The notes beneath the pieces were generated by a model, which worked only from the letters and a program-made list of their open reading frames with translations, did no database searches and was not told the origin of the DNA. Made by a program: the position numbers and the translations under genes. Shown here in pieces: positions 29,322 through 54,873 of a stretch of 64,000 bases of DNA. Positions within the stretch are counted from its first letter, which is position 1; the number at the start of each line of letters is the position of its first letter. Source of the DNA: Bradyrhizobium guangxiense (GTDB lineage Bacteria; Pseudomonadota; Alphaproteobacteria; Rhizobiales; Xanthobacteraceae); assembly GCF_004114915.1 (NCBI RefSeq), contig NZ_CP022220.1, forward strand, positions 310,001-374,000. Direction: 5' to 3'.

Positions 29322-30250
29322 GTCGAGTAGCTCAGCCATTTGGCTTTCGCCCTCACAGATCCGGGCAGGCGGCTTTCCCGCACCCGGCTCTTCCCGAGAG
29401 TAACCCGCGTCATATCCGCGCCTGCGCCCAAGTGCGAGTGATGCCCGGACCGGGCAGACGGAAGTGTGTCGTCAGGGTCTCGAACTCCGACCAGCCCATG
29501 CGCCGACTTTTCTGGCTACGCCGTCTCAGACAGCGCATCCACGTCCGACGCACTTCGCGGTAGAAGCCGTTGAGCGCTGGATAATTGTGCGGCCTGCCGT
29601 AGTAGCCGTAGTGTCCACGCAGAACAGCGGCGAACCACTGGTGCTGCGTGGCCAGTGACTCGTGCATGAGCCGCCAGGCGTCCTGGCGCAACGCCGTCAG
29701 CTTGCGCGTCAGGCGTTTCCCGTCCGTCTTGTGCTTCACCATGAACCGGCCGTCCCGGGTCCGCCCGCAGTAGTGGGTGAAGCCGAGGAAGGCGAAGGTC
29801 TCGGGCCGCCGCTCGCCGCGCCGCTGACGCGAGAGGGCCTCAAACCGGCCAAACTCGATCAGCCGCGTCTTGCCCTCATGAAGCATCAGGCCAAAGCTGG
29901 CCAGCCGCACCTTGAGGGCCAAGAGCATCTCCTGCGCATCCGCCTTACTCTCGAAGCCCATGACGAAGTCGTCGGGCATAGCGCACGGTGCGACCGCGTG
30001 CATGGCGACGGCGCCATTGGTGGGCCCAGAGATCGAGGACGTAGTGCAGGAAGACGTTGGCGAGGAGCGGGCTGATGCCCGCCCCTTGCGGAGTACCCCT
30101 GTCCGTTTCTTGCTTCTCGCTGCTCTCCAGAACACCGGCCCGCAGCCACAGCCCAATGAGCCGTAGAATGCGAGGATCGGCGATCCTGTGCGCCAGCATC
30201 CGCAACAGCCACTCGTGGTCGACCGAGTCGAAGGAAGCGGCCACACACTA
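29322..30250 (-). mobile_element. 5'-truncated group II intron
   Basis: The 3' end is at 29322. Domain V-like text GAGCCGGGTGCGGGA and its pairing arm GCCCGGAT lie at about 29340-29385 on the minus strand, followed by a domain VI stem and the terminal CTACTCGAC. The intron-encoded reverse transcriptase fills the interior but its first third, and the whole intron 5' part, are missing beyond about 30250, where a recombinase module begins in the opposite orientation. Confidence 0.75.
29410..30244 (-). pseudogene. Group II intron reverse transcriptase/maturase, truncated and frameshifted
   Basis: The first piece (30244-29945 frame) has FDSVDHEWLLRML and GTPQGAGISPLLANVFLHYVLD. The catalytic YADD region then breaks: one extra base turns RYADDF into MPDDF, so the rest (FVMGFESKADAQEMLLAL... 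to the maturase part GHYGYYGRPHNYPALNGF) is in another frame. The N-terminal fingers are gone. The protein cannot be active. Confidence 0.85.
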
Positions 30251-48228: not shown

Positions 48229-48349
48229 CCTCCTCCCGAAGTTCGAGCTACGTGCGCGCGGGCTTTTCAAGTGTACGCATACGACGAAGGCCGCCTGATT
48301 GACGCATGCGCGCGAGCACGGCGAGTTCTACGATGGCGTTGCGTGAAGG

Positions 48350-49208
48350 TCAGGCGGCTTGCTGATCGGCGGACTTGCCGGCTTGGTGAAGGAGCTTCCA
48401 TTCCCAGGGCAGCAGTTCGCGCAGACGCGAGGTGGGAAGATCGGCGATCCGGGCGAGGACGTCGGCGAGCCAAGCCTTGGGATCGACGTCGTTGAGGCGA
48501 CAGGTCGTGATCATCGTCAGCATGATAGCGGCACGGTCGGCGCCACGTTGGCTGCCAGCGAAGGTCCAGTTGCGCCTTCCCAAGGCAATGCCTCTCAATG
48601 CACGCTCAGCGCAATTGTTGATCAAGCAGATCCTGCCATCGTCGAGGAAGCGGACGAAGCGTCCCAGCGCTTGAGCATGTAGTTCATGGGCTTCAGGACC
48701 TCGGCGGAGCGGGAGAGGCTTTCTCGCTCGCGGAGCAGCCAGGCGTGCATGTCGTCGAGCAGCGGCTTGCTCCGCTCCTGGCGCACAGCACGCCGCTCGT
48801 CGGCACCACGGCCGTTGATGGCGCGCTCGATCTCGAACAGGGCGTCAAGACGCCTGACCGCCTCCAGCGCGATCGGGGAGACCGGTTTGCCCTTGCCTTC
48901 CCGGGCGGCTTTCTCGATGTCAGCCAGCTCGAAGAATCCCCGCCGCGCATGGGCCAGGCAAAATGCCGGAGTGATCGGCATTGCTTTCCTTTTTGGATCG
49001 AACAACGGCTCGAAGCCGCCATAGCAATCCGCCTGCAGAATGCCGGCGAAGGCGGCCAGATGCCTCTGAGGATGTTCGCCCCGTCGGTTGCCCGAGGCAT
49101 AATAGACCGCCGCCGGCGGCGCAGGCCCGGCGAACGGCCGGTCATCCCGCACATACGTCCAGATCCGGCCGGTCGTGCATTTGCCCTTCGCCAGGATCCG
49201 GATGGTGG
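48350..49208 (-). pseudogene. tnpC: IS66 transposase TnpC, 3' exon with a frameshift
   Basis: This is the second exon of tnpC after intron 1. It begins in CC-ATC-CGG so that, joined to the first exon, the protein reads HGDDTTIRILAKGKC, as in intact TnpC proteins. The C-terminal half follows (GRIWTYVRDDRPFAGPAPPAA, CYGGFEPLF, CLAHARRGFFELAD). Near 48658 one base is missing: LKRWDA...continues in the next frame as the conserved NNCAERALRGIALGRRNWTFAGS to 48350. So TnpC is broken even after splicing, unless this base is a sequencing error. Confidence 0.85.
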
Positions 49209-50538
49209 GGTGAGTAGGCCGGAGGGATTTCACCTCCAGCCTCTCGCAGAACCGGGCGTGAGACTCTCGCCTCACCCGGCTCCCATCAGGCAAGCTTGCC
49301 GCCACGCCGAGTTGCCAATGCACAAAGAGCCTGCGGTTCTCACGCGCGATCTTCTCCAGGAAGAGACGCGCGCGTCCTAAACGGTGATGGAAGCGCTTGT
49401 ACTTTCGCTTCAACCAAATACCTAACGTCTGGTTGATGTAGCGCGCCAGCGGATAAAGCGCTGAGCGGGTGTATTGCCCATAATAAGCGATCCACCCCCT
49501 AACCATCGGGTTTAGCTCGCGAGCAATATCGTCCAGCGTCACCTCGGCTCGCCTGCGAAGTTTCAAGCCTCGGACCTTCGCCCGCATGGCGTTCAGCGCT
49601 GGTTTGCTGACCGCCGGGGTGAACCCACAGAACATCTTCTGCGAATGCGGCCCCAGGACCGATCGTGGCCGGAAGCAATAACCGAGAAAGTCAAACATGA
49701 CCGTCTCGCTTTTACCTCGGCGTCGATCATCCTTGCAGTAGACGATCCTCGTCTTCGTAGGATGCAATTCCAGATGGCACTCCGCCAGCCGAGCCTGGAG
49801 CGCTTCGCGAACGCTTTGCGCCTCCATCTCATTCCGATAATGTACCAACCCGTCATCCGCATACCGACACCACCTGAGATCGGGGAACGTCCGCGCCATC
49901 CAGAGATCAAATGCATAGTGCATGAAGAGGTTGGCGAGGATCGGGCTCACCACGCCCCCTTGTGGGGTGCCGCGGCTTCGCTCGATTATCGTTCCATCCT
50001 CTTGCACCATCGGCGCTGTCAGCCATCGTTCGATGTAGAGCAGCGCCCATGCGCACGTCACATGTTTCCGGACGGCCCGTAGCAACAACTCGTGGTCGAT
50101 ATTGTCGAACAATCCTTTGATGTCGAACTCTAGAAACCAATCATACTTCCAGCACCGCTGTCGCGTGACGCCTACGGCATCGAGAGCCGATTTTCCGGGT
50201 CTGTAGCCATAGGAATCCGCCAGAAAGATTGCGTCAAGAGCCGGCTCAATCAGTTGTTTAACAACTGTCTGTGCCACGCGGTCCGCCACGGTGGGCACCC
50301 CGAGGATCCTCTGGCCTCCACTCTTCTTTGGAATGGAGACAGCCCGAACAGGCGGCGGGAAGTAAGCGCCTGAACTCATTCGATTCCAAATCTTGTAGAG
50401 ATTTCCCTTCAAGTCGGACTCGAACTGCTCAATCGTCACTCCGTCGACACCGGCTGCGCCACCATTGGATCGCACCTGCAGATATGCTTCGTACACCTCT
50501 CTCTTGTCGATGTTGAACGGCTTGCTCGGCTGGTTCAT
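48622..50538 (-). CDS. ltrA: Group II intron reverse transcriptase/maturase reading on into TnpC
   Basis: The ATG at 50538 has AGGAGGAC upstream. Residues 1 to about 425 are a group II intron reverse transcriptase and maturase: GGQRILGVPTVADRVAQTVV, LEFDIKGLFDNIDHELL, RGTPQGGVVSPILANLF, RYADDGLVHY (catalytic YADD) and the X domain (GWIAYYGQYTRSALYPLARY). No endonuclease domain. There is no stop codon before the intron end at 49209, so the frame crosses domains V-VI and the splice site and continues in frame as 195 residues of TnpC. The sister intron at 52115 has its own stop. The unspliced message would encode an RT-TnpC fusion. Confidence 0.9.
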   Translation of the reverse strand: MNQPSKPFNIDKREVYEAYLQVRSNGGAAGVDGVTIEQFESDLKGNLYKIWNRMSSGAYFPPPVRAVSIPKKSGGQRILGVPTVADRVAQTVVKQLIEPALDAIFLADSYGYRPGKSALDAVGVTRQRCWKYDWFLEFDIKGLFDNIDHELLLRAVRKHVTCAWALLYIERWLTAPMVQEDGTIIERSRGTPQGGVVSPILANLFMHYAFDLWMARTFPDLRWCRYADDGLVHYRNEMEAQSVREALQARLAECHLELHPTKTRIVYCKDDRRRGKSETVMFDFLGYCFRPRSVLGPHSQKMFCGFTPAVSKPALNAMRAKVRGLKLRRRAEVTLDDIARELNPMVRGWIAYYGQYTRSALYPLARYINQTLGIWLKRKYKRFHHRLGRARLFLEKIARENRRLFVHWQLGVAASLPDGSRVRRESHARFCERLEVKSLRPTHPTIRILAKGKCTTGRIWTYVRDDRPFAGPAPPAAVYYASGNRRGEHPQRHLAAFAGILQADCYGGFEPLFDPKRKAMPITPAFCLAHARRGFFELADIEKAAREGKGKPVSPIALEAVRRLDALFEIERAINGRGADERRAVRQERSKPLLDDMHAWLLRERESLSRSAEVLKPMNYMLKRWDASSASSTMAGSA

Positions 50539-51097
50539 CGACGTCCTCCTGTTGCCAGTTGCGACGATGGCCAGCCCACCTGATCCGATCCCTTCGCTCC
50601 GGCCCCATTACGAGCCTTCGTCGCTAATACGGATCGGTCCGTCCCAGTGCTCCGCGTCGGTAATCTCGCCTCGCGGTCTTCTCCGCTTGTGCTTCTCCCT
50701 TTCCATCGGAGCGACTGGTTCCTGCAGTTCCGCGGCAGCGCCTGCATCCGATTCACGCCCCCTCAACGCCGGTCGCCGCCCGCCCGGTCATCAGGCTCCC
50801 GGCGGGCTCATCCCAGAGGGACGACACACCTCTGGTTTTGACGACGATTTCCACGTTACGACGGTTCATCGGCGGGTTCATTTTCATTCGTCTCTCGGAC
50901 GCGTATCCGTTCGGGTCTCCCCCGACCGTTAGCTTCAACGCTCACGACCGCGCCTCTTAAGCGAAGCCGCTTGAAGTGATTTGAGACCTACTCCTGAAAG
51001 TCGATCCCGAGGGGCCTACCCTCATCGCTGCCACAGCTTGCGCGCACAGATTTTCAGATCATTTTGATCATCCTTTCTGTGTGCTTCTGCAGAACAC
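49209..51097 (-). mobile_element. Group II intron 1, inserted in IS66 tnpC
   Basis: The intron begins GTGTTCTGCAG (51097) and ends CTACTCACC (49209), with domain V (GAGCCGGGTGAGGCG ... CGCCCGGTTC) and a domain VI stem just before the end. Borders are set by two facts: removal gives canonical HGDDTT in TnpC, and the 5' end matches that of intron 2. The uncertainty is one base. Length 1889 bp; sense orientation relative to tnpC, so splicing would restore the message. Confidence 0.88.
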
Positions 51098-51899
51098 TGT
51101 CATCGCCGTGCAGCCGCTCGGCGGCGAGGACATGGCGCTCAATCAGCTGGAACAACGGCATGACGGCGAAGGTTCCGTGGCCGACCTGGTCGGCCAGCGT
51201 CGACAGCGGCAGGGCGATCCGCTCAGCCTTGAAGCGCACGCTCTGGCGATTGAGCGGGATATGCATGCCGAACTTGTCGAACAGCATTGTCGCCAGCAAT
51301 TGCGGACCGATGAAGCCGCGCGGCGTGGCATGGAACGGTGCCGGCGGCTGGCTTATCTTCTCGCAATCACGGCAGGTGAACTTCTCGCGTACCGTCTCGA
51401 TGACCTTAAAGCGACGCGGAATCTCCTCCAGCGTCTTGGTCACATCCTCGCCTAGCTTCGCAAGGCGCGATCCACCGCAGCAGGCGCAGGTCGTTGGAGC
51501 CTCGATAACGACGCGCTCACGTTCGATGTCGTCCGGCCACGGCTTGCGCACCGGCCGCTTACGCGTGAAGGCGCTTACGCTCTGGGTTTTTGCGGCGGCA
51601 GCCTGCGCAGCCAGCTCATTCTCGGTCGCCGTGGTGGCGAGTTCTTCGAGCTCCAATTCCAACTGCTCGAGTAGCCGCGCCGTGCGCTCGGAGCGCAGCC
51701 CGTGCAGTTCGCGTTTGAGCTTCTCGATCCGTAGCTCAAGATGAGCGATCAGCACCTCGCTGTCCGACAGCTCCGCCCGCGCGTTGGCGGCATCCGCGAC
51801 TGCCACATCGCGTTCAGCCTGCAACGCCTCGCGCTCGGCCAGCAGCGCAAGGTAGGCGCTCGCGAGATCCGACGGAAGATCGTCCGGCTTCGATGTCAT
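51098..51899 (-). CDS. tnpC: IS66 transposase TnpC, 5' exon
   Basis: The first 267 codons of TnpC, from the ATG at 51899. It shows a Leu/Glu-rich coiled N-terminus (LLAEREALQAERDVAVADAA), the zinc-finger CACCGG...CRDC region, and SQPPAPFHATPRGFIGPQLLATML and ERLHGDD (start of the DDE core) at the exon end. The exon and the 3' exon at 49208 are in the same frame: 802 + 587 bases are divisible by 3 up to the frameshift. Without splicing the frame ends 15 codons into the intron. Confidence 0.9.
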
Positions 51900-51944
51900 G
51901 AAGCCATTGAATCAGATCAAGCCGCAGATTCAAACCAAAAACGG

Positions 51945-52114
51945 CTATCCGACACGCGTCGGACGATGAGTTTCTTGAGGGTTGCGCCAATCGATTCCGG
52001 ACAACAGGTAGCTCATCTGAGCCGATGAGATCGTCACCGCTTCGCCCGCAACCGATGGCCAGACGAACCTTCCTCTCTCAAGTCTCTTAGTGAACAGGCA
52101 TGCTCCCTGGCCAT
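51945..52114 (-). CDS. tnpB: IS66 TnpB, 3' exon
   Basis: The second exon of tnpB, after intron 2. It begins AT-GGC-CAG and continues GACLFTKRLERGRFVWPSVAG and ends ...SGIDWRNPQETHRPTRVG. Together with the first exon it has 348 bases (116 codons with stop), exactly the size of an IS66 TnpB (115 residues). Confidence 0.9.
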
Positions 52115-54001
52115 GGTGAGTCGGCCCCGGGAGTTGCACCCGGAGCCGCTCTCCGAACCGTACGTGACGCTCTCACGTCATACGGCTCTCAACAAGTAAC
52201 GAAGCAGAACCTAACATCGTCCAATGAGCGAACAGCTTCGGCCTACGGCAGCGGATCAGCCTGAGCCTGGTGGAGGCCCTGACTTTTCCATTCTTCAGCC
52301 CTTTGTATTTGCGTCGCGCCCAGCGGTTTAGAGATTCGTCGACGTATCGATACAGGTTATGCATTTCTGACCGCCCATATCTGCCGTAGTACTGCATCCA
52401 TCCACGAAGGACGGGGTTCAGTTCCAAGGCGATTGCGTCGATTTCCGTCTGCGAGCGAAGCCTGAGCCGGAGCTGCCGGATCGTCATCCGCATAGACTTC
52501 ATTGCCGCCCTGCTGACCGCTGGCGAGAACGTACAGAAGTTTTCTTTCTTCTGATGGTTTCTTGCCCTGCGCGGTCGAAAGGTAAATCCCAGAAAGTCAA
52601 ATGACTGACTGGCATGGCTACCCGGGCGATTGCTATCTTTGCAGTAGACGATCTTGGTCTTGTCGGGATGCATTTCGAGTTCGCATTCCCTGAACCTCGC
52701 CTGCAGCGCCGCCTTGATGGCTTCCGCTTCAGCCTTGGTTCGGCAATGTACGAGCCCGTCGTCCGCGTATCGACACCACGGTGACTGCGGGAAGTTTCGC
52801 GCCATCCATATATCGAACGCATAATGCAAGAACAAATTGGCAAGGACGGGACTGATCACGCCGCCTTGGGGTGTACCCCGGTCGCGAGCGGTGATCGCTC
52901 CGTCTTTGCCTTGCATCGGCGCTGTTAGCCAGCGTTCGATGTAGAGCAGAGCCCATTCGTCTTGCACATGCTTCCTGACGGCTTTCATAAGCAACTGGTG
53001 GCTGATATTGTCGAACAGGCCTTTGATGTCGAACTCCAGCACCCAGTCCATCTTCCAGCACCGTTGCCGGGTGATGCCGACGGCGTCCAGCGCGGCTTTT
53101 CCGGGCCGGTAGCCGTAGGAATCGGGAAGGAAGATTTTCTCGAGTACTTGTTCAATCTGAAGCTTGACGACCGTCTGCGCCACGCGATCTGCTACTGTCG
53201 GCACGCCTAGAATGCGTTGTCCGCCGTTCTTCTTGGGAATGGGGACAGCCCGAACGGCAGGTGGAAAGTAGCTGCCAGAAGACATTCGATTCCAGACCTT
53301 GTAAAGGTTGCCCTTGAAGTCCTTCTCAAAAGCTTCGAGCGATACCTTATCCACGCCGGCCGCGCCCGCATTGGCTTTGACCAGTTTGTAGGCCTTCATC
53401 ACTGTCTGCTTGTCGATATCGTACTGCTTACGTCCGGTTACACTCACATGTCCTCCTGCTCATCACAGTTGCATATGGGCGCAACCCACTTGTTTCGGCC
53501 CCTTCGCTCCAGTTCCATTACAGCCCCTTCATCACTACTACGAGCCGATCCGCCCCAGTGTTGTGCTTCGGTACTCTCGTCTCGCGGTGTGTGCCGCTTG
53601 AACTTCTCCCTTGGCATCACAACGACTGGTTCCTGCAGTTCTCTACAAGAGCCTGTATCCAGATCGCGTCCCCTAAACGCCGGTCGCCATCCGCGCAGTA
53701 ATCCAGGCGTCTCACGGATTGATCTCAGGGATGGCACGCGCCCCTGATTTTGGCGACGCCTTAGTAATTTTCGACGCGTCATCGGAAGATTTGCTTTCGC
53801 TCGCCTTCTGGATACTTACCTGCCCCGTAAACCCGGGACTTTTGCAACACTTGCTGATGACCGCGCCTTTTAAACGAAGCCACAGTGTCGTGGTTTTGCA
53901 CCTGCGCCTGGAACACCGATGCAGGAGGGCCGTCCTCCATCTCTCATAAAGCTGTACGCATCAAATTCGGTTATTCACCTCCTTCATGCTCTGCAGCACA
54001 C
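52115..54001 (-). mobile_element. Group II intron 2, inserted in IS66 tnpB
   Basis: The intron begins GTGTGCTGCAG (54001) and ends GACTCACC (52115). Domain V (GAGCCGTATGACGTGAGAGC... with ACGTACGGTTC) and domain VI are at the 3' end. Removal gives VIWHDGQGACLF in TnpB, the canonical text. Length 1887 bp. 5' and 3' ends resemble intron 1, but the sequence is clearly diverged (for example different loops in domain V), so these are two separate insertions of related introns. Confidence 0.9.
52173..53447 (-). CDS. ltrA: Group II intron reverse transcriptase/maturase
   Basis: A 424-residue intron-encoded protein, starting at a GTG with GGAGG 9 bases before it. It has all reverse transcriptase blocks: GGQRILGVPTVADRVAQTVV, LEFDIKGLFDNISHQLL, RGTPQGGVISPVLANLF, RYADDGLVHC (YADD) and a maturase domain (GWMQYYGRYGRSEMHNLYRY). 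There is no HNH endonuclease domain. It appears intact and is very similar in layout to the protein of intron 1. Confidence 0.95.
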   Translation of the reverse strand: MSVTGRKQYDIDKQTVMKAYKLVKANAGAAGVDKVSLEAFEKDFKGNLYKVWNRMSSGSYFPPAVRAVPIPKKNGGQRILGVPTVADRVAQTVVKLQIEQVLEKIFLPDSYGYRPGKAALDAVGITRQRCWKMDWVLEFDIKGLFDNISHQLLMKAVRKHVQDEWALLYIERWLTAPMQGKDGAITARDRGTPQGGVISPVLANLFLHYAFDIWMARNFPQSPWCRYADDGLVHCRTKAEAEAIKAALQARFRECELEMHPDKTKIVYCKDSNRPGSHASQSFDFLGFTFRPRRARNHQKKENFCTFSPAVSRAAMKSMRMTIRQLRLRLRSQTEIDAIALELNPVLRGWMQYYGRYGRSEMHNLYRYVDESLNRWARRKYKGLKNGKVRASTRLRLIRCRRPKLFAHWTMLGSASLLVESRMT

Positions 54002-54179
54002 CGTGCCAGATCACCTTCACAAGATCGCTGCGGCGACCGCGGAAGACGAACAAATGACCGCTGAGCGGTTCTTTGCGCAGCACCTCCTGAACTTGGAGGG
54101 CCAGCGACAGGAAGCCTCTGCGCATATCCGTGTAGCCTGTCGCCAGCCACACTCGCACATTCCCTGGTACAGCAATCAT
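54002..54179 (-). CDS. tnpB: IS66 TnpB, 5' exon
   Basis: The first 59 codons of TnpB from the ATG at 54179, overlapping the tnpA stop (ATGA): MIAVPGNVRVWLATGYTDMR, GFLSLALQVQEVL, LSGHLFVFRGRRSDLVKVIW-H. The exon ends inside the Asp codon (G at 54002), completed by AT of the 3' exon. In the unspliced frame it would run 13 codons into the intron and stop. Confidence 0.9.
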
Positions 54180-54577
54180 CGGCGTCCAAGCACATCGAGG
54201 ACCCGCGCCAGCGCCTCCGGATCGACGTGCGCATCCACCCGGATGCACCGTCGGTTGCCGAGATCGATCTCTATCAATCCAGTACGTGCGGCTGCCGCCG
54301 AGCGAACTCGGCCATCAACCGTAGGCAAAAGCTTCGCAGTTTCTTCAGCCGAGGCCGCTACGGCGGCGATCTGCACCGGCGTAAAAGATGGTGCAACTTG
54401 TTCCGATGTCCGTGCTTGTCGACGCCAGGTAAACACCAGGCTGGCCGCTACTCCGTTGCGCCGCGCGACTTCAGTTACCTTCGCGCCCGGTACTAGCGTC
54501 TCCTCGACAATCCGTGCCTTGTCGTCCTGCGACCAACGCCGCCGCCGCTCAAGCCCGCCCAAAACTTCGACCCGCAT
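54176..54577 (-). CDS. tnpA: IS66 accessory protein TnpA
   Basis: A 133-residue protein starting MRVEVLGGLERRRRWSQDDK, with a helix-turn-helix (VPGAKVTEVARRNGVAASLVFTWRRQAR) and the usual C-terminal VDAHVDPEALARVLDVLGRR. The stop overlaps tnpB. Intact. Confidence 0.93.
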   Translation of the reverse strand: MRVEVLGGLERRRRWSQDDKARIVEETLVPGAKVTEVARRNGVAASLVFTWRRQARTSEQVAPSFTPVQIAAVAASAEETAKLLPTVDGRVRSAAAARTGLIEIDLGNRRCIRVDAHVDPEALARVLDVLGRR

Positions 54578-54873
54578 CGCCTGATGACCTTAAAGCTAGA
54601 CTTAAGGTCACACGCTTCGCGAATTACCACCCGTCACGCAAGACGGTCCTCGTCGGAGGCGTACTTTCAAGTGGACGAGAATGTCGGCTCGCTTCGAACG
54701 CAGAATGGGGCCCAGCGCGCCTGTGAGCCCGTAGCGGGCGCGTCAAGTTGCTGAGGTCAAGTCAGCAAACTCCGCTGCTGGAGTTTTCCAAACAGCCGCT
54801 CAAATCTAGGGAGAAGTCAGCCGAACCGGTCTACGATTAGCGTCGGCCGTCAAAGCAATCTGGAACGCGCCAC

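What the first reader, a model, noticed from the sequence alone, without database searches (positions are those of the whole stretch)
48273..54664. One IS66 element hosts two group II introns whose in-silico removal restores both transposase genes at the junctions
Ends and the 8-base duplication TTTCAAGT prove one IS66 insertion of 6392 bp. Two introns (51097-49209 in tnpC; 54001-52115 in tnpB), both in sense orientation, start GTGTKCTGCAG and end ACTCACC. Joining exons gives HGDDTT in TnpC and VIWHDGQG in TnpB with correct total length (TnpB 115 residues). So the selfish introns may be nearly silent passengers of the IS: splicing lets the IS work and the IS spreads the introns. Two related introns in two neighbouring genes of one element is uncommon.
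Basis: partly seen in the sequence, partly recalled or inferred. Interest (0 to 1): 0.8.

Follow-up and report, generated by a model that had tools for sequence, protein, structure and literature searches.

The report
Two IS66-homing introns in one transposon
A jumping gene on a peanut-nodule bacterium's plasmid has been invaded by two different introns of the self-splicing kind, each of which aims at one conserved spot in one of the jumping gene's own genes, so it is a double infection of one mobile element by two parasites that target it.

Summary
One IS66 element (48273-54664, 8-bp duplication TTTCAAGT) carries two sense-oriented group II introns, exactly 49209-51097 in tnpC and 52115-54001 in tnpB; an intronless relative (Bradyrhizobium sp. 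62B) shows both empty sites to the base. (1) As assembled, tnpC exon 2 carries a frameshift that splicing cannot cure; the sister copy compared lacks it. Both one-base lesions lie in the 1.2 kb that is repeated in the genome, so assembly error is possible. (2) The introns belong to separate, fully supported clades of RmInt1-like, endonuclease-less introns, each with its own homing codon: IS66 tnpC HGDD|T and tnpB WH|D. Each recurs at that codon in different IS66 elements, the intron usually far more alike than the host exons; in one genome two introns 99.95% identical sit in two tnpC genes 55-60% identical. EBS1 in a domain-1 loop pairs with exon -7..-1, and G·U pairs fall only on third codon positions. 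Among fetched loci only this plasmid lineage had both introns. The RmInt1 precedent (<1% ligated exons) favours a brake on the IS over silent passengers; splicing is untested.

The parts
48265..48272 (.). left target duplication TTTCAAGT
48273..54664 (-). IS66 element, tnpA-tnpB-tnpC read on the minus strand; TIRs 19 of 24 positions
54665..54672 (.). right target duplication TTTCAAGT
54176..54577 (-). tnpA (133 aa, PF01527)
54002..54179 (-). tnpB exon 1 (59 codons plus first base of codon 60, Asp)
52115..54001 (-). group II intron I2 (1887 nt), homing site WH|D of tnpB
53732..53738 (-). I2 EBS1 CGTGCCA (intron nt 264-270), 7 of 7 Watson-Crick with TGGCACG at exon -7..-1
   Evidence: 29-nt hairpin -9.6 kcal/mol, z -1.2
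52173..53447 (-). I2 reverse transcriptase/maturase, 424 aa, RVT_1 + GIIM, no endonuclease domain found
52115..52190 (-). I2 domains 5/6
51945..52114 (-). tnpB exon 2
51098..51899 (-). tnpC exon 1 (267 codons plus first base of Thr268)
49209..51097 (-). group II intron I1 (1889 nt), homing site HGDD|T of tnpC; 5' end GTGTT instead of GTGTG
50820..50826 (-). I1 EBS1 TGTCGTC (intron nt 272-278), 6 Watson-Crick + 1 G-U with GATGACA at exon -7..-1
   Evidence: 29-nt hairpin -12.6 kcal/mol, z -3.1
48622..50538 (-). I1 RT/maturase frame, 638 aa as assembled, running into tnpC exon 2 after a one-base difference near 49.3 kb; 417 aa in sister L023
49209..49284 (-). I1 domains 5/6
48351..49208 (-). tnpC exon 2; frameshifted at about TnpC residue 451 (near 48.66 kb) in this assembly, open in sister L023

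Best explanation
Double infection of one IS66 by two separate, target-dedicated group II introns. Each is an RmInt1-like (class D-like) retroelement whose protein has RT and maturase domains but no endonuclease domain that could be found. Its RNA carries a 7-nt guide (EBS1) in a domain-1 hairpin loop that pairs with the last 7 nt of the 5' exon, a codon block of IS66: Asp-Asp-Thr of the transposase TnpC for I1, Trp-His-Asp of TnpB for I2. Because the intron sits after the first base of a codon, third codon positions fall at -2 and -5. There the I1 guide has G at both; the I2 guide has G at -2, and at -5 faces the single codon of Trp. Synonymous codons are thus still read through G·U pairs, and each intron can home into IS66 elements with different codons. 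I1 and I2 reached this element independently; a near-identical IS66 in strain 62B still has both sites empty. Shown: boundaries, empty sites, guide complementarity, separate clades, the same intron in diverged hosts. Inferred: retrohoming by reverse splicing (from RmInt1) and splicing of the transcripts. Consequence, inferred: splicing lets some transposase be made, probably little. In this copy tnpC could not be restored by splicing as assembled.
For: Exact empty sites. Of 63 insertions with different 24-nt 5' exons and a readable start, 54 have 7 of 7 EBS1-IBS1 pairs at the best of 40 offsets, against 393 of 3184 intron-exon pairings across target classes scored the same way (before this stricter de-duplication 64 of 73 and 582 of 4260). 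All 18 tnpC insertions bear the same EBS1 over four synonymous targets (GACGACA 7, GATGACA 4, GATGATA 4, GACGATA 3); 9 of 10 tnpB insertions bear CGTGCCA over TGGCACG 4 and TGGCATG 5, the tenth CGCGCCA. Over the 40 tnpC, tnpB and IS630 insertions all 28 G·U pairs are at -2 (16) or -5 (12); one mismatch, at -3. The tnpC, tnpB and IS630 classes each form one clade (100/100) in a tree of 50 intron proteins, and I1 and I2 are not sisters. Introns exceed both flanking exons in identity in 65 of 66 pairs of 12 tnpC hosts. In G448 two introns 99.95% identical sit in tnpC flanks 55-60% identical with different codons. RmInt1's published IBS1 GAUGAGA (PMC3123198 and PMC4238363, passages) equals the IS630-type target of S. 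meliloti locus L174.
Against: No splicing or mobility was measured. G opposite a third position is also the Watson-Crick partner of C, so the data show tolerance of synonymous codons, not selection for it; one IS630 subclade carries C at -2. That all G·U pairs fall on third positions follows in part from the conserved amino acids. Loci come from searches seeded with these introns; only two matches per genome were scored, and only the best 80 of 366 relatives were kept. 12 of 63 insertions have other or non-coding targets. EBS2 is not settled, and the I2 hairpin folds no better than many shuffles (z -1.2). The pair L035-L087 goes the other way (intron less alike than exons), which fits co-inheritance with the IS. 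'Class D' rests on similarity to RmInt1-like loci, not on a class model.
Confidence: 0.8

Rival explanations
1. Brake on the IS: the introns splice poorly, so they mainly silence the transposase genes they occupy, as reported for RmInt1 in ISRm2011-2. This concerns the effect, and is compatible with the homing account.
For: PMC4238363 (passages): <1% of RmInt1 exons correctly ligated in vivo, and a run of four C across the 3' splice site suggested as one cause. I1 has such a run (CACC|CCACC). I1 of this lineage has GTGTT where 58 of 63 distinct insertions have GTGTG. Each of the five closed sisters searched, and the window's genome, shows one full intron-bearing copy and one truncated copy of this IS at near 100%.
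Against: 7 of 13 distinct tnpC hosts with both ends readable keep long open frames (at least 249 codons) on both sides in the same phase. I2 has no such C run (CACC|ATGG). Splicing was not measured.
Confidence: 0.5
2. One reading: nearly silent passengers, spread by the IS.
For: Exons abut in phase. A second IS copy with intron-1 sequence starts exactly at the IS end in unrelated flank, and is present in 5 of 6 sisters.
Against: Where one genome holds two copies of an intron, hosts differ in G448, G011 and G219. G200's two copies align at 93% over intron and part of exon 1, and G175's at 81% over intron and exons, which may be same-kind hosts; G261 could not be told. Introns are more alike than hosts in 65 of 66 pairs. 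tnpC of the window copy is frameshifted as assembled.
Confidence: 0.15
3. The window copy is a decaying relic: intron 1 and tnpC are no longer functional here.
For: Frameshift in tnpC exon 2, lost stop of the intron-1 protein, intron base 5 differing from relatives. The tnpC shift is also in the second copy of the same genome.
Against: In 49,352 bases aligned to a sister the only 2 indels are these two, both within the 1.22 kb repeated elsewhere in the genome, which suggests mis-assembly or gene conversion. The sister lacks both. Intron 2 and the tnpB frames show no lesion.
Confidence: 0.35
4. One intron copied itself within the element, giving the second.
For: They share about 66% of nucleotides and 61% of protein residues.
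Against: They fall in different fully supported clades with different guides.
Confidence: 0.02

Closest known systems
RmInt1 of Sinorhizobium meliloti (class D / IIB3) in ISRm2011-2 (IS630 family)
   Same: RT-maturase without endonuclease domain; 7-nt EBS1-IBS1 at -7..-1; lives in an IS transposase gene; protein of the matching S. meliloti locus about 70% identical to I1; C run across the 3' splice site shared by I1
   Different: Targets IS630 (DE|T), not IS66; a separate clade; no double occupancy described in the passages read
E.c.I3 in IS679 (E. coli)
   Same: A group II intron that homes into a specific IS (PMC3522654, passages); IS679 is of the IS66 family (family recalled, not from a call)
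   Different: Enterobacterial; its site within IS679 and its intron class were not compared here
IStrons
   Same: IS and self-splicing intron in one element (abstract start of PMC4227781 in the listing)
   Different: Group I intron in a chimera that moves as a unit; here group II retroelements that invade the IS from outside

Membership tests
IS66 family element | tnpA, tnpB and tnpC (PF01527, PF05717, PF03050 + zf-IS66) side by side | tested here: met
IS66 family element | 8-bp target duplication and terminal inverted repeats | tested here: met
Group II intron | D5/D6 and D1-D4 structure at the ends claimed | tested here: met
   (RF01999 and RF00029 above gathering scores for both)
Group II intron | exact insertion relative to an empty site | tested here: met
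Group II intron | intron-encoded RT/maturase (TIGR04416) | tested here: met
   I1 tested on sister L023
Group II intron | 5' GUGYG consensus (usual, recalled as not strictly required), I2 | tested here: met
   GTGTG
Group II intron | 5' GUGYG consensus (usual, recalled as not strictly required), I1 of this lineage | tested here: not met
   GTGTT; close relatives of I1 in other hosts have GTGTG
Group II intron | splicing | not testable with these tools
   needs RNA
RmInt1-like class D (IIB3) | no endonuclease domain in the intron protein | tested here: met
RmInt1-like class D (IIB3) | 7-nt EBS1-IBS1 spanning -7..-1 | tested here: met
   PMC3123198 passages
RmInt1-like class D (IIB3) | phylogenetic place inside class D with reference introns | tested here: inconclusive
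   I1 lies on the side of the IS630/RmInt1-like clade; I2 lies on the other side of the midpoint root; no class reference set was used

The most novel reading that the evidence does not exclude
A clade of endonuclease-less group II introns reads protein motifs rather than DNA words. Its guides sit in coding phase 1, with G or U opposite synonymous third codon positions like an anticodon, and are aimed at the codons of the catalytic Asp/Glu of unrelated DDE transposases: IS66 DD|T, IS630 DE|T, ISAs1 VE|N, IS3 WD|. Their hosts cannot mutate away from such a guide without losing the transposase, so the introns are family-wide parasites or natural brakes of transposons. A double-hit IS66 is the expected end state.
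Probability: 0.35. Interest if true: 0.72.

Novelty: new variant of a known kind. Interest (0 to 1): 0.52.

Why it matters
Group II introns in IS elements are known, and one survey concluded that group II introns do not prefer conserved sites (PMC2814812, abstract and passages). Here two lineages each hold to a single codon of a transposon gene across many host elements, in phase, with a guide that tolerates synonymous change; the Asp-Asp of the tnpC site is invariant in the 12 hosts compared. That makes testable whether intron guides are tuned to protein motifs, and whether introns restrain transposons in symbiotic megaplasmids. The double-hit element, its single-hit relatives and an intronless relative form a natural comparison set for measuring the cost of each intron to the IS.

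Tried and rejected
Duplication of one intron into the other: the tree speaks against it. Chance insertion: each site recurs in diverged hosts. Intron 3' end one base earlier (canonical AY): the empty site fixes ...ACC|. EBS2: several partial matches, not settled. Selection for wobble in EBS1: not shown; in the IS630 class C-guides occur only with GAG hosts (6 of 6) and U-guides with GAG (3) and GAA (3), too few to decide. Phylum and order samples gave few relatives (6 of 398 and 4 of 397 genomes at the E-values asked, the own genome included in both). A protein search with the 62B TnpC listed only relatives of 80% or more and was not used for conservation. Whether the Asp of HGDDT is the catalytic one in IS66, and the like for the other families, is motif knowledge recalled, not tested. 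My first count of 'distinct' insertions (73) still held several rows of one insertion; the stricter count (63) is used here.
Full report
WHERE. The window is G000:C2:310001-374000 of an 8.2 Mb two-contig genome. Its nearest named records are megaplasmids of Bradyrhizobium from peanut; six hold the whole element with flanks at 99.9%. Against one of them (NZ_CP030054.1, L204) 49,352 bases align at 99.97% with 13 mismatches and 2 indels.

OBSERVATION. Bradyrhizobium sp. 62B (CP092842.1, L020) has the same IS66 without either intron, at a site of its own flanked by CATGGTGC. Its aligned pieces match the window at 97.4-99.4%, except a 118-base tnpB stretch at 82%. That fixes both introns to the base: 49209-51097 and 52115-54001. 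Neither end can slide, so both introns end in ACC. Both lie in coding phase 1: Thr268 of TnpC and Asp60 of TnpB are split after their first base. Rfam finds D1-D4 and D5/D6 of both above gathering scores, the D5/D6 match ending at the 3' ends found here. Both proteins show RT and maturase domains and no endonuclease domain.

tnpC exon 2 matches the 62B protein in one frame to residue 450 and in another from 452 on, so splicing would not restore TnpC of this copy as assembled. The same shift is in a second, truncated copy in the same genome (L002). The sister copy L023 matches 1-267 and 269-553 without a shift. A second one-base difference lets the intron-1 protein frame run on into the tnpC exon (638 aa against 417). 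These two are the only indels in 49 kb, and both fall in the 1.22 kb that exists twice in the genome, so true mutation, gene conversion and mis-assembly all remain open. Intron 1 begins GTGTT in this lineage. Of 63 insertions with different 5' exons 58 begin GTGTG, 3 GTGCG, 1 GTATG and 1 GTGTT, the last being this lineage.

THE SAME CODON, MANY HOSTS. In 265 Bradyrhizobium genomes, 67 had a match to I1 and 53 to I2 at E 1e-50 or better, cross-hits between related introns included, with at most two matches scored per genome. Among the loci fetched by those two calls (30 each, from the best matches), every I1 copy of 85% or more that shows an intron end lies at the same tnpC codon, and every I2 copy of 92% or more that shows one lies at the same tnpB codon. 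Five I1 hosts (L028, L030, L032, L033, L034) have tnpC exons only 60-69% identical to the window's with introns 94-97% identical; others (for example L035, L059, L060, L062) have mostly closer exons. Twelve tnpC hosts were compared pairwise: the intron is more alike than both flanks in 65 of 66 pairs. The exception, L035-L087, has intron 87.7% and exons 90.6 and 90.8%. In L087 against the window all three are 87-88%, which also allows co-inheritance. The strongest case is G448, where one genome holds two copies with 1 difference in 1891 nt in two tnpC genes whose flanks are 55-60% identical and whose target codons differ (GACGATA and GACGACA); both keep open frames on both sides (287+275 and 260+285 codons). 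Of 13 distinct tnpC hosts with both ends readable, 7 keep frames of at least 249 codons on both sides in phase 1 (L023, L028, L087, L090, L104, L163, L168) and 6 do not (L030, L032, L033, L034, L035, L114); the window copy itself is represented there by its sister L023.

GUIDE. In both introns a 7-nt stretch at the same place in domain 1 pairs with exon -7..-1: I1 TGTCGTC with GATGACA (6 Watson-Crick and 1 G·U), I2 CGTGCCA with TGGCACG (7 Watson-Crick). The stretch sits in a hairpin that folds at -12.6 kcal/mol (z -3.1) in I1 and -9.6 (z -1.2, so not remarkable) in I2. Over 63 insertions with different 24-nt 5' exons, 54 pair 7 of 7 at the best of 40 offsets; pairing each intron with exons of other target classes gives 393 of 3184, a control inflated by targets that resemble each other. 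All 18 tnpC insertions carry the same guide, and their targets are the four synonymous forms of Asp-Asp (7, 4, 4 and 3). Of 10 tnpB insertions 9 carry the I2 guide. In the 40 tnpC, tnpB and IS630 insertions there are 28 G·U pairs, 12 at -5 and 16 at -2, none elsewhere, and one mismatch at -3. This shows that the guide tolerates synonymous codons; it does not show that the guide was selected to do so, because G is also the partner of C and because the amino acids are conserved.

TWO CLADES. In a tree of 50 intron proteins (frames of at least 380 residues, from the 73 rows), the tnpC, tnpB and IS630 classes each form one side of a branch with 100/100 support, and I1 and I2 are not neighbours. 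The other classes do not: the Glu-Asn class needs 5 changes, the RT-gene class 3. Other members of the wider group sit after Asp or Glu codons of ISAs1 (L160, L161) and IS3-like (L152) transposases, identified by exon matches below the NCBIfam cut-offs, or inside what reads as another group II intron's RT gene (L048, L096). Twelve of 63 have other or non-coding targets (L152 is among these twelve by its letters). The group therefore leans to transposases without an absolute rule. That these Asp/Glu are the catalytic ones is recalled motif knowledge.

DOUBLE OCCUPANCY. Outside the peanut-plasmid lineage (G000, G046, G048, G147, G148, G149 and, cut at a contig end, G264) no element with both introns was seen among the fetched loci. 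Where both sites are visible, I1 hosts have a tnpB without I2 (L028, L030, L032, L033, L035, L036) and I2 hosts a tnpC without I1 (L021, L058, L059, L060, L063). The double-intron copies in the six sister plasmids are one and the same insertion, flanks included.

DOES THE IS CARRY THE INTRONS? One case fits: a fragment with 285 nt of the 3' part of I1 begins exactly at the IS end in unrelated flanking DNA, in the window's genome and in 5 of 6 sisters searched; the sixth is a draft in which it was not found. But where one genome holds two copies of an intron the hosts differ in G448, G011 and G219. G200's copies align at 93% over intron and part of an exon and G175's at 81% over intron and exons, so these may be same-kind hosts; G261 could not be told because its contigs break at the intron.

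MECHANISM AND EFFECT. By analogy with RmInt1 the introns would enter single-stranded DNA at the replication fork by reverse splicing (PMC5894124, passages). RmInt1's IBS1 is GAUGAGA at -7..-1 (PMC3123198 and PMC4238363, passages). S. meliloti locus L174 has exactly that target, preceded by letters that read FIDE, with guide TTTCGTC, so two of its seven pairs are G·U, at -2 and -5. I infer that L174 is RmInt1; the record carries no annotation there. RmInt1 is reported to ligate <1% of its exons in vivo, and a run of four C across the 3' splice site is suggested as one reason (PMC4238363, passages); I1 has that run and I2 does not. I therefore rate a braking effect on the IS above silent passage, without measurement.

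KNOWN OR NEW. Introns homing into IS elements are known: RmInt1 in ISRm2011-2, and E.c.I3 in IS679 (PMC3522654, passages). Nine full-text searches listed no paper that I recognised as being on group II introns in IS66 of Bradyrhizobium, on two introns in one IS, or on codon-tolerant guides. The library holds open-licence papers only; papers not opened were seen as titles and abstract starts, and of those opened I saw passages. I rate the finding a new variant of a known kind.

The recount lowered the number of distinct insertions from 73 to 63 and the counts that hang on it; proportions barely moved.

Noticed in passing
window 29322-29392 (-): A third group II intron D5/D6 (49.7 bits); the aligned sister record annotates a short 'maturase' beside it (record 131759-132328), so probably a truncated intron.
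   Followed up: partly
G000:C2:308737-309863 (just left of the window): An IS66 relic deleted from within tnpC into I2, keeping 420 nt of I2 at 99% with IS parts at 85% and (with the intron piece) 94%: I2 in another IS66 on the same plasmid.
   Followed up: partly
G000:C2:600696-601917: Second, truncated IS copy with the 3' part of intron 1, starting exactly at the IS end.
   Followed up: yes
L087 (Acidobacteriaceae metagenome bin): I1-type intron with intron and exons all 87-88% like the window element: possible cross-phylum transfer or mis-binning, and possible co-inheritance of IS and intron.
   Followed up: no
L048 3391-4098 and 866-1498 (-): A related intron inserted at FLGY|T inside what reads as the RT gene of another group II intron, with matching guide TGTAGCT.
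   Followed up: partly
L179, L180, L181, L183: More distant relatives whose 5' sides look like IS3 (L179, L181) and a different IS66 tnpC site near LPLYR (L180, L183), read by eye; boundaries not fixed.
   Followed up: no
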